Shown here piece after piece: positions 346 through 51,060 of a stretch of 64,000 nt of DNA. The notes under the pieces were generated by a model that saw only the letters and a program-made list of their open reading frames with translations, was not told the DNA's origin and made no database searches. The DNA lies in assembly GCA_022606425.2 (NCBI GenBank), contig JAHDVF020000240.1:682001-746000 (forward strand), written 5' to 3'. Positions within the stretch are counted from its first letter, which is position 1. Every line of letters begins with the position of its first letter. The position numbers were made by a program, and so were the translations under genes. The stretch is from Lepidostoma basale. Its lineage: Eukaryota; Arthropoda; Insecta; Trichoptera; Lepidostomatidae.

Positions 346-479
346 GGGATCCTTTTTTTATTTTACTTATAATGCAATTATCTGCCTAATATGCCTAAAT
401 AAAATTATGAAGAAAAATCAATTTCTCATACATTTTGTATGGAAAGGCTTTTTTAATGATTTGAAATAAACGCTTGCCT

Positions 480-991
480 CAAACCATCGACTCTGTGATG
501 CTATGTGTTATTCGCCATGATGATCAACAAATCACAAGGCCAATCCTTGGGTGTTTGTGGCCTAAATCTAGAAAATGAATGTTTCTCTCACGGTCCATTG
601 TGCGTAGTATCACGTGTCCGCAAACCATCCGCTTTGTTCGTTCTCTCACCTGACAACAAAACAAAAAATGTCGTATATCACAAGGTGCTTCAATGAAGGT
701 AATCGACCCGAGTGCAACCCATCTATTAAATATAATAATTTAACAGAAAGTAGTCCAACAATGCTACGCGAATCATTTCGATTCGCTTCAATAAAGTAAA
801 TCCGTAGCTGCCGCCACGTGAATTATGTTACATTCATTTCAATGTAATTTTCATTATGATTTTTGCACATTTATTGAAGCTAATTCATTTTAAGTTTTCG
901 TTTTAAATTAATAAATAACTGAATTTAATTCAGCTAATAAGTTAACACAACATTGATTCTGAGGCGGTACGGAGTTCGCCGGGTTAGCTAG
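480..991 (+). mobile_element. Helitron 3' part with helicase C-terminus
   Basis: The frame at 505-693 reads LFAMMINKSQGQSLGVCGL, then SRVRKPSALFV and NKTKNVVYHKVLQ before a stop. This is the C-terminal end of the Pif1-like helicase of Rep/Hel proteins; AMTINKSQGQ and SRV are the conserved helicase blocks. About 290 bases downstream a GC-rich stretch ends in GGTTAGCTAGT at 981-992, which fits the CTAG end of a Helitron followed by a host T. The Rep domain and the rest of the helicase are missing, so it is a dead 3' remnant. Confidence 0.75.
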
Positions 992-3953: not shown

Positions 3954-5239
3954 TTAGGTCCTTACATATGAAATTGGCGTTTTGCCGTACTGGCAACTTT
4001 GATCTCAAATATCTTCTCTTTGGTTAGGAATTCCAAATTCAAATTTATACAGCTATTTACTCAAGTATTTGTGTTTCGAAAATTATAATTCATTTGTTTT
4101 TTCCTCAATTGTTTTTTTCTTTGCGTCACTCAGTTTACAAAATGGAAAACTTGAAATATCGCGTTATTTACGAGTACGAGTTCCACCGTGGCACCAGTGC
4201 TGCAGAAACGGCTCGAAGGATTAATGATGTGTATGGCGACGGTGCCGCAAAAGAAAACACAGTGCGTTTTTGGTTCCAACGTTTTCGTTCTGGAAATTTC
4301 GACCTGCAGAACAAGCCCCGTGGACGGCCGGAGACCAAAGTTGATAATGAAGAATTGAAGGCTATTGTGGAAGCGGATCCATCGCAAACCACGTCCGAGT
4401 TAGCTGCAGGCTGCGGTGTTAGTGATAAAACTGTTTTAATCCACTTGAAGCAAATTGGGAAGGTGAAAAAGCTTGAAAGGTGGGTACCTCACGAATTGAG
4501 TGAAGCAAATCAACAAACGCGCGTTGACTGCTGCGTTGCATTACTCAACCGGCACAATAATGAAGGGATTTTGAATCGAATCATTACCTGTGATGAAAAG
4601 TGGATCCTGTATGATAATCGGAAGCGCTCATCGCAATGGCTGAACCCTGCCGAACCAGCCAAACCATGCCCCAAGCGAAAATTGACTCCAAAAAAGTTAC
4701 TTGTGAGCGTTTGGTGGACTAGTGCTGGTGTCGTTCACTACAGCTTTCTTAAATCTGGCCAGACGATTACGGCAGATGTCTATTGTCAGCAACTGCAAAC
4801 CATGATGGAAAAGCTAGCTGCTAAACAACCGAGGCTGGTTAATCGCTCTAGGCCACTGCTGCTTCATGATAACGCTAGACCACACACTGCACAACAGACG
4901 GCTACCAAATTAGAAGAGCTTCAATTGGAATGTCTAAGACATCCACCGTACTCTCCGGACCTTGCCCCAACAGATTGCTATTTTTTTCGAAATTTGGATA
5001 ACTTCTTGCAAGGGAAAAAATTCAACTCCGATGGGGCAGTCCAAACCGACTTTAAAGATTTTAATGATTCCTGTCCGAATGGTTTTTTTAGTAAAGGGAT
5101 CGATGAACTACCTATGAGATGGCAAAAATGCATAGATATCAATGGTACATACTTTGATTAAATAAATATATTATATTTAAAAAAAATCAACTTTATGTTC
5201 CTCCCATACAAAACGCCAATTTCATATGTAAGGACCTAA
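3954..5239 (+). mobile_element. Complete mariner transposon, 1286 bp
   Basis: The terminal inverted repeats at 3954-3984 and 5209-5239 are 31 bp and identical, beginning TTAGGTCCTTACATATG. The element is flanked by TA at 3952-3953 and 5240-5241. The pre-insertion sequence can be read from the opposite arm of the host palindrome (5341-5356), which has a single TA at that place. Length and TIRs fit the mariner family; the subfamily is probably cecropia-like. It carries one open transposase frame. Confidence 0.92.
4142..5161 (+). CDS. Mariner transposase (DD34D), apparently intact
   Basis: The product cuts and pastes its own element at TA dinucleotides in the nucleus. The frame is 339 codons from ATG at 4142, the usual length for mariner; an in-frame ATG at 4094 would add 16 residues and is less likely because family members start MEN near this point. 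Residues 1-110 hold the paired helix-turn-helix region, with an RGRPETKVDNEEL linker. The WVPHEL signature is present, as are the catalytic aspartates in TCDEKW, LHDNARPHT and YSPDLAPTDC. The last motif has C where Y is usual. No frameshift or internal stop is seen. No host gene is fused to it. Confidence 0.92.
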   Translation: MENLKYRVIYEYEFHRGTSAAETARRINDVYGDGAAKENTVRFWFQRFRSGNFDLQNKPRGRPETKVDNEELKAIVEADPSQTTSELAAGCGVSDKTVLIHLKQIGKVKKLERWVPHELSEANQQTRVDCCVALLNRHNNEGILNRIITCDEKWILYDNRKRSSQWLNPAEPAKPCPKRKLTPKKLLVSVWWTSAGVVHYSFLKSGQTITADVYCQQLQTMMEKLAAKQPRLVNRSRPLLLHDNARPHTAQQTATKLEELQLECLRHPPYSPDLAPTDCYFFRNLDNFLQGKKFNSDGAVQTDFKDFNDSCPNGFFSKGIDELPMRWQKCIDINGTYFD

Positions 5240-26700: not shown

Positions 26701-26834
26701 TGATTTTTTCTTATTCTTAAGCTTAATTTTTTTTAATGCTTCTCTTTTTATAATGTAAATGCAAACGATTTGGAATTGTATGTCAAAGATCAATTTCTTA
26801 TAAACTATACAAATAAAATCATATAATTGAAAGC

Positions 26835-26872
26835 GACAGCTCTTTCATTAACCTATGTTGACATCATCAGGT
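26835..26872 (-). ncRNA. Hammerhead-like motif, D type, left arm
   Basis: The minus strand has the full CTGATGA core, one extra T, the stem GTCAAC/GGTTAAT-type, GAAA, then AGAGCTGT and C. One base of the self-complementary stem III is changed (G for C). Confidence 0.55.
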
Positions 26873-26945
26873 GTTACAATAATATATCAAATGTCAAATT
26901 TGAAAAATCACGAAAATTTGACATTTGATATACTCGTATTCTTGA

Positions 26946-26990
26946 CACACCTGATGATGTCAACATAGGTTGATGAAACAGCTGTCGCGT
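26946..26990 (+). ncRNA. Hammerhead-like motif, D type, right arm
   Basis: CTGATGA at 26951, one extra T, stem GTCAAC/GTTGAT (6 pairs with one wobble) closed by ATAG, GAAA at 26975, then ACAGCTGT and the cleavage-site C at 26986. All invariant core bases are present. Stem I is only partly paired. Confidence 0.62.
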
Positions 26991-27092
26991 AAAATAAAAT
27001 ACAATTGGAATACAAAAAAACAAAGTTATTTAATTTAACATTTTAAAATGTTAAGGTATCATAGTGTTTCGGCCAAAACAATGGACTATTTA

Positions 27093-27320
27093 AAAATAAA
27101 ATTTAACATTTTTTATTCTATTTTGTATTTGTGCAATATTTTGTATATTAGCGCAACACCCTGTAGCTATATATGTTAATCTAGCTACTTTCAAATCCAC
27201 CGGTATACTTACTATTTCTAGATATTTATTACCGGGGTTACAGGCGCAACTCTCGATCGGCTTATGGTCCATTCAACCGCCTCACGTTGAGCGCCCGCCA
27301 GCGGATTTAGCTTTAATTTT
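27093..27320. other. Unassigned stretch
   Basis: No gene or element end is recognised. Confidence 0.3.
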
Positions 27321-27383
27321 AATCTACTTTGGGAATTAATTAAACATTGTTTAGACCGCTTTTTTAATAAAAAAATATTAAAA

Positions 27384-27424
27384 TACACGACATGTTTCAG
27401 AGTATACCTCCATCTTCAGGTGTA
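27384..27424 (-). ncRNA. Minimal hammerhead ribozyme motif, left arm
   Basis: The minus strand reads stem I TACAC, CTGAAGA (CUGANGA core), one extra T, a 4-pair stem II, GAAA, the self-complementary ACATGT, C, then GTGTA closing stem I with five pairs. All invariant core bases are present. Stem II is weaker than in the right arm. Confidence 0.68.
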
Positions 27425-27546
27425 AAAAATGTAACAAAAACTAAACAAAGAAAGACTAATAAAAAACGCATTTAAAATTGGATATAAAAATTCAAAATTA
27501 AAAATTAATTTCCCATTCCCAACCAAATGCAAATTAATCATTTATT

Positions 27547-27690
27547 TATAACTAACTAACTAACCATCACGCCGTCTCCCCGAAGGGGTAGGCAGAAAGA
27601 ATGGACTGCCACACTTTTCTTTCCTGACATATTTCTCTCACTTCCTCAACATTCATACATCGTGTCATGCACGCGCGTCGATTTATCGGA
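27547..27690 (-). mobile_element. Family A LINE 3' end nested in palindrome
   Basis: The (TAAC)n tail and ACGCCGTCTCCCCGAAGGGG start it at 27547; the minus frame gives MTRCMNVEEVREICQERK and AYPFGET before truncation near 27690. It is a 140-base 5'-truncated insertion. Confidence 0.7.
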
Positions 27691-27925
27691 CTTGTTTATT
27701 AATTTCTATATAAATTATATCTCTTCAAGTGTATGATTTTTCTAAATTATATTATCATCGTGTATTATTATTATTTAATGTTATTTATTATTTTACTGTT
27801 AAAAAATAATTGTTAGTACCTACTTATAACAAATAGCCGAACTTAATTTTTAATTTTGAATTTTTTATCGAATTTTAAATGAGTTTTTTATTAGCCTTTC
27901 TTTGTTTAGTTTTTGTTATATTTTT

Positions 27926-27966
27926 TACACCTGAAGATGGAGGTATCCTCTGAAACATGTCGTGTA
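27926..27966 (+). ncRNA. Minimal hammerhead ribozyme motif, right arm
   Basis: TACAC (27926-27930) pairs with GTGTA (27962-27966) as stem I. CTGAAGA follows at 27931, then one extra T, stem II GGAGG/CCTCT closed by TAT, GAAA at 27952 and the self-complementary ACATGT. The predicted cleavage site is after C27961. Every invariant base is present. The very short stem III suggests that it acts as a dimer, as proposed for minimal hammerheads of Penelope-like elements. Confidence 0.72.
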
Positions 27967-28029
27967 TTTTTATATTTTTTTATTTAAAAAGTGGTCTAAA
28001 CAATGTTTAATTAATTCCCAAAGTAGATT

Positions 28030-28496
28030 ACTATGGAATTCCACAGTGTTAATGCCTTAACTTTCAATAATTTAATTTTAATGCTGATGTTTTTAGCAGC
28101 AAAACGTTTGTCAGCCAGCTCTAGGCAAAGGCGGATTAACAGAACGGCCACCTTTTCTCACAGAGAACTCGTTTTATAACTTAAAAAATCCCACAACGTA
28201 AGGCACCAAGAGCCCTCGGATTTTATGCAAACGAAATTAACCCGTTTGCGCTTTTGAATTAGGATTAAATTGCTTTAAACTTATGCATAGCTTCATAAAT
28301 CAGATGTATGGTACTTTGGTGTTTTTTTACTGTGGTTTTAAAGGTCTTCGATAACATATTTTATCTATAAAATTTCGTTCTTATTCTATATTCAGACAAG
28401 ATTTTCCACATCTTCACTCTATAACTCGATCATATATGCTTTTTGAAAATCAAAAAGTATACGATTTTAGTCCGGGAACTACTCTGTCAATGCTTT
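28030..28496. other. Unassigned stretch
   Basis: No gene, repeat or element end was recognised. Confidence 0.3.
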
Positions 28497-50520: not shown

Positions 50521-50829
50521 AAGAAGAATAAGACGAAAATACCATGTCATTAATTGATGGGGTATAAAAAACGTATTAAGGTTATATCGAATGTCATCAC
50601 CGTCAGGTGGAGTGAAATTAGGAACATGTCATTTTAATTTAGAAAAAAAAATGACGGGATCAAAATATTAAAATATTAAATGCCGTCCACGTGAGAGGTC
50701 GGAGAAATCGACGTGCGTGCATGACACGAAGCAAAAAGCTTTGTTACTAATATTTTTGCGCAGCAAAGTTTAGGACACCTGGTTTAAAGTAAAATTACGT
50801 TATTACATTAAAATAATCATTAATTGTAC
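50521..50829. other. Unassigned stretch with family A scrap
   Basis: Positions 50655-50730 carry the DQ.. NAVHVRGRRNRRACMT block of family A on the plus strand. The rest is not recognised. Confidence 0.4.
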
Positions 50830-51060
50830 TTAAAACAAATAGCCCAGATTACTTATTAAATTAGAATTATTGTATTGAGTTTTAAATGCGTTTTTATATT
50901 TGTCTTTTTTGTTTAGTTTTTATTATATTTTTACACCTGAAGATGGAGGTATCCTCCGAAACATGTCGTATTTTTTCATATTTTTTTAATAATTAGTGGT
51001 TTAAACAGAGTTATTTTCAATTTCCTAAGTATAAAATTACATTCACATTAAATTGAAATA
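50830..51060. mobile_element. Arm of hammerhead-bearing element (A type)
   Basis: The sequence from TTTTAAATGCGTTTTTATAT through GTTTAGTTTTTATTATATTT to GTGGTTTAAACAGAG matches the right arm at 27870-28010. The left arm is absent. Confidence 0.6.
50932..50972 (+). ncRNA. Minimal hammerhead ribozyme motif (A type)
   Basis: CTGAAGA at 50937, one extra T, perfect stem II GGAGG/CCTCC closed by TAT, GAAA at 50958, self-complementary ACATGT, and C at 50967. The stem II pair that is G-U at 27939 is G-C here. Stem I is shorter because the 3' side reads GTATT. Confidence 0.68.

What the first reader, a model, noticed from the sequence alone, without database searches (positions are those of the whole stretch)
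27321..28029. Palindromic element carrying a canonical-core hammerhead ribozyme in each arm
Both arms contain stem I (TACAC/GTGTA), CTGAAGA, stem II, GAAA, a self-complementary ACATGT and the cleavage C, in opposite orientation so that each cleaves outward. Stem II pairs differ between copies: the outer pair is G-U at 27939 and G-C at 50945, which keeps pairing. Minimal hammerheads with a palindromic stem III are known in the terminal repeats of Penelope-like retroelements and are thought to act as dimers. Here the carrier is a short palindrome without any protein frame.
Basis: partly seen in the sequence, partly recalled or inferred. Interest (0 to 1): 0.88.

Follow-up and report, generated by a model that had tools for sequence, protein, structure and literature searches.

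The report
Head-to-head Penelope insertion with hammerhead ribozymes
This palindrome is a cut-short copy of a known kind of jumping gene (a Penelope-like retroelement) that most likely went in twice, back to back, in one event, so it carries the element's small self-cutting-RNA motif twice; its ends record how such elements join the genome.

Summary
The hammerhead motifs are real, but the carrier is not a new short palindrome. The longest copies run upstream, on the same strand, into GIY-YIG and reverse-transcriptase coding sequence: the carrier is the 3' end of a Penelope-like element (PLE). Minimal hammerheads in PLEs, inverted pLTRs and an optional tail are published.

The window element is one head-to-head pair of 5'-truncated arms, 27324-28070, flanked by a 12-bp target duplication.

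Pairs elsewhere in the genome follow a rule: one arm stops at a short end, the other runs 40-50 bases further through the tail. This holds in 36 of 39 classifiable pairs (46 found; no tail/tail pair) and in 5 of 5 pairs of a second family with an RT+GIY-YIG ORF, 4 of them with 12-13 bp target duplications.

Most likely both cut target strands prime reverse transcription on the element RNA, at two different internal start sites. The published self-priming idea should, by my inference, give tails on both arms or neither. Filed as a new member of a known kind, with a testable insertion rule.

The parts
27312..27323 (.). left copy of the 12-bp target site duplication TTTAATTTTAAT (its last 4 bases also match the end of the arm)
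   Evidence: two copies on the + strand of the window, at 27312 and 28071
27324..27510 (-). left arm: 5'-truncated PLE 3' end, ending at the short end without tail
   Evidence: (model 369-560, minus strand)
27384..27424 (-). hammerhead motif of the left arm; innermost stem II pair is a G/A mismatch
27511..28070 (+). right arm: longer PLE 3' end with tail, interrupted by a nested repeat
   Evidence: start at 27511 read by eye against L008 as printed
27549..27692 (-). nested dispersed repeat inside the right arm (about 18 other places in the window match it); not part of the palindrome; strand by eye
   Evidence: matches to query 449-593
27926..27966 (+). hammerhead motif of the right arm: TACAC / CTGAAGA / T / GGAGG-TAT-CCTCT / GAAA / CATG / T-C / GTGTA, predicted cut 27961/27962
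28031..28070 (+). PLE tail, present only in the right arm
28071..28082 (.). right copy of the target site duplication TTTAATTTTAAT
50810..51033 (+). single arm of the same family with hammerhead 50932-50972, short end, no partner arm found

Best explanation
The palindrome is one insertion of a Penelope-like retroelement in which two truncated cDNA copies of the element's 3' end were joined 5'-to-5'. The hammerhead is the minimal ribozyme near the element's 3' end (pseudo-LTR), carried along because every copy starts at that end. Proposed mechanism: the GIY-YIG endonuclease makes a staggered cut (12-bp duplication). Each of the two target 3' ends then primes reverse transcription on the sense element RNA. 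One strand starts about 65 bases past the hammerhead (short end), the other 40-50 bases further (tail). Each cDNA stops at its own place, and the two cDNA 3' ends are joined, often at AT-rich sequence. Shown here: anatomy, family, target duplications, the one-short-one-tail rule, differing truncations. Inferred: priming by both target strands, and two start sites used one per strand. Not shown: ribozyme cleavage, or any role of the ribozyme in insertion.
For: PLE identity: same-strand GIY-YIG coding sequence upstream of this hammerhead in L008, L051, L067, L012 and L015, and RT plus GIY-YIG in L024 (33% over 372 aa to the L069 ORF, E 1.4e-46), flush with the family's arm. All 150 genome places scored with that GIY-YIG piece match, of 7,348 first-look candidates; nine of them are also over the Pfam GIY-YIG cut-off in the list.

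One event: a shared flank of 10 bases or more in 11 of 46 pairs, against 20 of 2,070 mismatched flank pairs (the L038 case is a flanking repeat). Arms of one pair are closer to each other (median 6.0%, 26 pairs) than arms of different pairs (9.7%, 2,112 comparisons).

Rule: 46 pairs in 70 stretches; 36 short/tail, 3 short/short, 0 tail/tail, 7 with an unclassifiable end (class limits set after seeing the ends). About half mixed would be expected; P about 1e-7 (36 of 40 pairings, one locus counted twice).

Second family: L069 and L080-L083 are 5 of 5 short/tail. L080-L083 have duplications of 13, 12, 12 and 12 bases; arms of the five are 97.5-99.5% identical.

Truncation points differ within pairs by up to 481 bases, and in L080-L083 by 316, 2, 231 and 31.

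Biochemistry of the lizard PLE PAc (PMC11167929, passages and section 3 part 2): both target strands are cleaved and extended, RT starts internally at two sites, and the tail is the stretch between them.
Against: In vitro, PAc showed no difference in start site between top and bottom strands, so the one-short-one-tail rule needs a further cause (site blocking, or a fixed order). Three pairs are short/short (L002, L030, L050). In the ten held-out loci five pairs were seen: two fit, L076 counts as short/short by the threshold (one side stops inside the tail), and L073 and L075 had a broken arm. 35 arm pieces had no recognised partner; one of them (L063) has a tail-only partner by eye, but single-arm insertions also exist. 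Many pairs share the same truncation point (17 of 46 within 10 bases), among the second family the 2.3-kb palindrome L081, as self-priming would also give.
Confidence: 0.72

Rival explanations
1. Self-priming: one strand is reverse transcribed, its end folds back (or an antisense RNA self-primes) and copies itself, giving a head-to-head palindrome. Self-priming on an antisense template is the interpretation offered for rotifer Penelope elements (PMC3846280, passages and the Discussion section).
For: Head-to-head is the only orientation seen among close pairs: 6 of 6 motif pairs within 300 b in the capped list, and 5 of 5 close GIY-YIG pairs among the 62 matches. Truncation points coincide within 10 bases in 17 of 46 pairs against 5.9 expected. 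L081 and L083 are near-continuous palindromes of 2.28 and 2.05 kb.
Against: A foldback copy should (inference) copy the tail as well; tail/tail is 0 of 39 and short/tail 36 of 39, plus 5 of 5 in the second family. Truncation points often differ by hundreds of bases. Outside the pairs that both end near the hammerhead, coincidence is weak (4 of 33 against 1.5 expected, P 0.06).
Confidence: 0.12
2. A non-autonomous DNA transposon (MITE or foldback) that picked up hammerheads in its terminal inverted repeats.
For: Inverted repeat arms, no reading frame in the window copy, very high copy number.
Against: The family extends into PLE coding sequence, inner ends vary, outer ends take two positions, duplications vary in length, and single arms exist.
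Confidence: 0.02
3. A metazoan retrozyme: a short tandem repeat element that moves through circular RNA made by hammerhead cleavage.
For: Type I hammerhead, non-coding short copies, and co-occurrence of retrozymes with PLEs in published genomes (PMC7761336 passages).
Against: Metazoan retrozymes are repeats of about 150-300 bp bounded by hammerheads and are described in that review as processed to circles. Here the close pairs are inverted, and the family extends into a PLE ORF.
Confidence: 0.04
4. The hammerhead resemblance is a passive relic of a conserved PLE leader or start-codon region and does not cleave.
For: Rfam models do not match. Single copies fold no better than shuffles. In the second family the core reads CTGTCGA (A6 changed) in 10 of 10 arms, 9 of them with stem III intact. 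Several cores have no stem I. Ribozyme mutants of PAc still insert.
Against: Both stems covary across nine representatives: 88.9% of cells paired against 60.1% in shuffles, 23 double-changed cells against 7.8, slid versions at most 53.9% (I picked sequences whose stems pair, which inflates this). Stem II pairs with one extra base in nearly every family without that choice. Stem III is palindromic in 71 of 89 cores, through five different palindromes. The PAc hammerhead, of similar geometry, cleaves in the presence of protein.
Confidence: 0.1

Closest known systems
Penelope-like elements with minimal type I hammerheads (Cervera & de la Pena 2014; Lunse et al. 2017; both recalled, not held; summarised in PMC7761336 passages)
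   Same: Hammerhead in or near the pseudo-LTR, no real stem III loop, self-complementary stem III, thousands of dispersed copies, GIY-YIG element
   Different: Here one unpaired base between A9 and stem II in nearly all cores examined. Whether published PLE hammerheads share it could not be checked; the PAc start codon placed at the start of stem II suggests they may
Poseidon PAc of Anolis carolinensis (PMC11167929, passages and section 3 part 2)
   Same: Internal RT start sites, an optional tail lying between two start sites, both target strands cleaved and extended, cut site 26 bases after the start codon (25 here, counted)
   Different: PAc shows no strand difference in start site in vitro; here the two arms nearly always use different ends. 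No cleavage data here
Penelope elements of the rotifer Adineta vaga (PMC3846280, passages and Discussion section)
   Same: Head-to-head inverted pLTRs, 31-bp tail optionally on one of the inverted pLTRs, 8-10 bp target duplications
   Different: There a small number of copies, explained by self-priming on an antisense template; here 46 + 5 pairs, whose tail rule argues for priming by both target strands

Membership tests
Hammerhead ribozyme (type I, minimal) | Conserved core CUGANGA ... GAAA ... UH | tested here: met
   for the window family; not met in the second family (CTGTCGA)
Hammerhead ribozyme (type I, minimal) | Stems I and II supported by compensatory change | tested here: met
   8 of 10 pairs with changes on both sides (5 of 500 shuffles reach that count, 0 of 500 reach the covariation score); 9 sequences chosen by me from families whose stems pair; families with little or no stem I were left out
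Hammerhead ribozyme (type I, minimal) | Stem II directly after A9 | tested here: not met
   one extra base is best in 49 of 51 cores with stem I of 4 bp or more
Hammerhead ribozyme (type I, minimal) | Match to an Rfam hammerhead model | tested here: not met
   no hammerhead family listed
Hammerhead ribozyme (type I, minimal) | Self-complementary stem III (dimer type) | tested here: met
   71 of 89 cores (65 of the 89 are this one family); ACATGT, ACCGGT, ACAGCTGT, ACTAGT, ACGCGT
Hammerhead ribozyme (type I, minimal) | Self-cleavage | not testable with these tools
   needs a bench assay
Penelope-like element | RT plus GIY-YIG ORF | tested here: met
   second family: 758 aa, PF00078 and PF01541 over cut-off. 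Window family: RT and GIY-YIG in L024 by similarity to that ORF, GIY-YIG over Pfam cut-off at nine places shared by the lists; no intact ORF of the window family was seen, and its 103-aa piece alone gave no Pfam hit
Penelope-like element | 5' truncation, inverted copies, optional tail, short variable target duplication | tested here: met
Penelope-like element | Tandem pLTR-ORF-pLTR arrangement | not tested
Metazoan retrozyme | Hammerheads in direct tandem repeats | tested here: not met
   close pairs are inverted: 6 of 6 in the capped list; 46 head-to-head pairs (pairs were defined as head-to-head there)
MITE / foldback DNA transposon | Fixed TIR ends and fixed-length target duplication | tested here: not met
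   two alternative outer ends, shared flanks of differing length

The most novel reading that the evidence does not exclude
PLE integration is by design two-sided: the two cut target strands each prime on element RNA at two obligatorily different start sites, and the self-complementary hammerhead stem III pairs two element RNAs so that each strand has its own template. The long-puzzling dimer-type hammerhead would then be a template-pairing device as well as a ribozyme, and single-arm insertions would be failures of the second side.
Probability: 0.12. Interest if true: 0.85.

Novelty: new member of a known kind. Interest (0 to 1): 0.5.

Why it matters
How PLEs insert, and why they keep a hammerhead, is unsettled in the papers seen here. 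A genome with thousands of copies, many head-to-head, is a fossil record of the reaction. The one-short-one-tail rule (36 of 39 classifiable pairs, and 5 of 5 in a second family) separates priming by both target strands from the published self-priming idea, and makes a prediction that an existing in vitro system can test. Motif reports that count hammerheads in such genomes should also expect inverted pairs as insertion products, not as separate ribozyme-bearing elements.

Tried and rejected
Rfam covariance search did not detect any hammerhead. Single-sequence folding was uninformative. A distinct MITE-like carrier was rejected once upstream PLE coding sequence was found. L069, fetched as a possible source element for the window family, is a different PLE family and joined the second-family test. 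I asked whether the short-end arm or the tail arm is the longer; by eye there was no clear bias, so no order of strands is claimed. A genome-wide count of palindrome centres was asked seven times and never answered. The shared-flank test used noisy ends and was replaced. In one search one locus (L068) was paired twice; one search uses one partner per arm. The centre-finding script did not find the true centre of L081, so the palindromes are cited.

Full report
WHAT IS THERE. Each arm of the inverted repeat 27320-27510 / 27840-28030 carries TACAC, CTGAAGA, a 4-5 bp stem II, GAAA, ACATGT and C, then GTGTA. A third copy lies at 50937. The core has one unpaired base between A9 and stem II; over cores with stem I of at least 4 bp, exactly one extra base gave the best stem II in 49 of 51. 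Rfam's hammerhead models do not match, and single copies fold no better than shuffles.

IS THE RIBOZYME STRUCTURE REAL. In 330 kb of this genome (mostly loci fetched for the motif) 76 cores have a palindromic stem III (the scan required it) and 46 of them also have stems I and II of 4 bp or more; reversed sequences gave 0. Nine sequences from several families, three of them the window copies, were aligned and the structure counted: 88.9% of cells pair (shuffled mean 60.1, 0 of 500 as high); 8 of 10 pairs have changes on both sides (5 of 500 shuffles reach that); 23 double-changed cells against 7.8; covariation score 0.739 against 0.222; slid partners give at most 53.9% paired. I chose representatives whose stems pair, which inflates these numbers: one search also lists families with little or no stem I (the CTGATGATG family, L007, L014 at 2364, L053, some single copies), and these were left out. 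Stem II holds in nearly all of them. Without requiring it, stem III is palindromic in 71 of 89 cores, with ACATGT, ACCGGT, ACAGCTGT, ACTAGT and ACGCGT all seen; 65 of the 89 belong to the window family. Selection for a hammerhead-like fold and for self-complementarity is supported. Activity is not shown.

WHAT CARRIES IT. I fetched 60 loci of 4 kb around such copies besides the eight. Copies extend upstream to different lengths. The longest (L008, L051, L067, L012, L015) encode on the same strand a GIY-YIG C-terminus similar to the end of a 758-aa ORF in L069, and L024 also an RT region (33% over 372 aa, E 1.4e-46), directly upstream of the family's arm. The L069 ORF has Pfam RVT_1 and GIY-YIG matches over cut-off. 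For the family's own GIY-YIG piece, 7,348 candidate places were found and the 150 scored all match; nine of these also appear over cut-off in the Pfam GIY-YIG list. No intact ORF of the window family was seen. The carrier is the 3' end of a Penelope-like element.

THE WINDOW ELEMENT. Left arm 27324-27510 (minus strand) and right arm 27511-28070 (plus strand) abut 5'-to-5'; the start of the right arm was read by eye. TTTAATTTTAAT flanks the whole at 27312 and 28071 and occurs nowhere else on the + strand of the window. Hence, most likely, one insertion event.

THE RULE. With a profile of the 3' end, 70 stretches (68 loci, L003 dropped because it overlaps L002, plus two window stretches) gave 46 head-to-head pairs. 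Outer ends: 36 short/tail, 3 short/short (L002, L030, L050), 0 tail/tail, and 7 with one end broken or unclassifiable. The class limits were set after looking at the ends. Under independence about half would be mixed; P about 1e-7 (computed on 40 pairings of which one locus was counted twice, so 36 of 40). 35 arm pieces had no recognised partner: 16 tail, 14 short, 5 broken; one of them, L063, has a tail-only partner by eye. Ten held-out 1-kb loci gave five pairs: L071 and L074 short/tail, L076 short/short by the threshold although one side stops inside the tail, L073 and L075 with a broken arm. Target duplications: shared flank of 10 bases or more in 11 of 46 true pairs against 20 of 2,070 mismatched; the L038 case is a flanking repeat. 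Within-pair divergence has median 6.0% (26 pairs) against 9.7% between pairs (2,112 comparisons).

A SECOND FAMILY. The five close pairs of GIY-YIG matches among the 62 are all in minus-then-plus order. I fetched four of the five (L080-L083), chosen only for that order. All four are head-to-head, have hammerhead-like motifs in both arms, one arm at a short end and the other with a further tail of about 47 bases, and duplications of 13, 12, 12 and 12 bases. L069, fetched for its long ORF, is also short/tail; its duplication cannot be read in a TA run. Arms of the five are 97.5-99.5% identical, so these look young. Truncation points in L080-L083 differ by 316, 2, 231 and 31 bases. In all 10 arms the core reads CTGTCGA, not CTGANGA.

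HOW IT MOST LIKELY WORKS. In the lizard element PAc, the protein cleaves and extends both target strands, reverse transcription starts inside the RNA at two sites, and the tail is the stretch between them (PMC11167929, passages and section 3 part 2). If both target strands prime on the sense RNA, the product is a head-to-head pair flanked by a short duplication. The observed rule adds that the two strands use different start sites; PAc in vitro showed no such strand difference. Rotifer Penelope copies were described as head-to-head with a tail optionally on one inverted pLTR and explained by self-priming on an antisense template (PMC3846280, passages and Discussion section). By my inference foldback copying should duplicate the tail; 0 of 39 pairs show that. 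Coinciding truncations (17 of 46 within 10 bases, 5.9 expected; 4 of 33 against 1.5 once pairs with both ends at the hammerhead-proximal spot are removed) are concentrated just upstream of the hammerhead; they may reflect an RNA 5' end or joining at self-complementary AT-rich sequence. This part is unresolved.

THE HAMMERHEAD'S ROLE. Unknown. In PAc the ribozyme cleaves only with protein present, and ribozyme mutants still insert. In a transcript of the window palindrome the arms are predicted to form a hairpin of about 190 bp (-290.6 kcal/mol, mean of 20 shuffles -111.8), so the two hammerheads of one palindrome cannot act as a dimer in one RNA.

NOVELTY. PLE hammerheads, inverted pLTRs, tails and dual-strand extension are in print (inverted pLTRs and short 3' extensions also in PMC8969392, passages). 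I found no statement of a strict one-short-one-tail rule, or of both-strand priming as the cause of head-to-head copies, in the listings and in the passages opened (PMC12910113 too); key papers are not held, so this is weak evidence of absence.

Noticed in passing
window 26821-27000: A second, smaller palindrome with hammerhead-like cores CTGATGATGTCAAC...GAAA in both arms, from another family; stem II covaries between copies and stem III is an 8-base palindrome in most, but stem I barely pairs. By eye its right arm carries a tail-like extension.
   Followed up: partly
L069, L080-L083: In the second family the core reads CTGTCGA (A6 replaced by T) in 10 of 10 arms seen, with stem II intact and a CCGG stem III in 9 of 10; either a dead ribozyme kept in a young family or a tolerated variant.
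   Followed up: partly
L007, L014, L031, L049, L053, L060: Further hammerhead-like families in the same genome with different stems and palindromes (ACCGGT, ACTAGT, ACGCGT), suggesting several coexisting PLE families.
   Followed up: partly
arm starts about 10 bases upstream of ACACCTGA (L025, L028, L033, L059, L061 and others): A hot spot where both arms of a pair begin, giving short symmetric palindromes; could be an RNA 5' end or an AT-rich joining site.
   Followed up: partly
window 27549-27692 and about 18 other places in the window: A dispersed repeat (TAACTAACTAACCATCACGCCGTCTCCCC...) nested in the right arm; looks like the 3' end of another retroelement (impression, not searched).
   Followed up: no
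window 4028-5161: An open frame of 377 aa resembling a mariner-type transposase (recalled resemblance, no search made).
   Followed up: no
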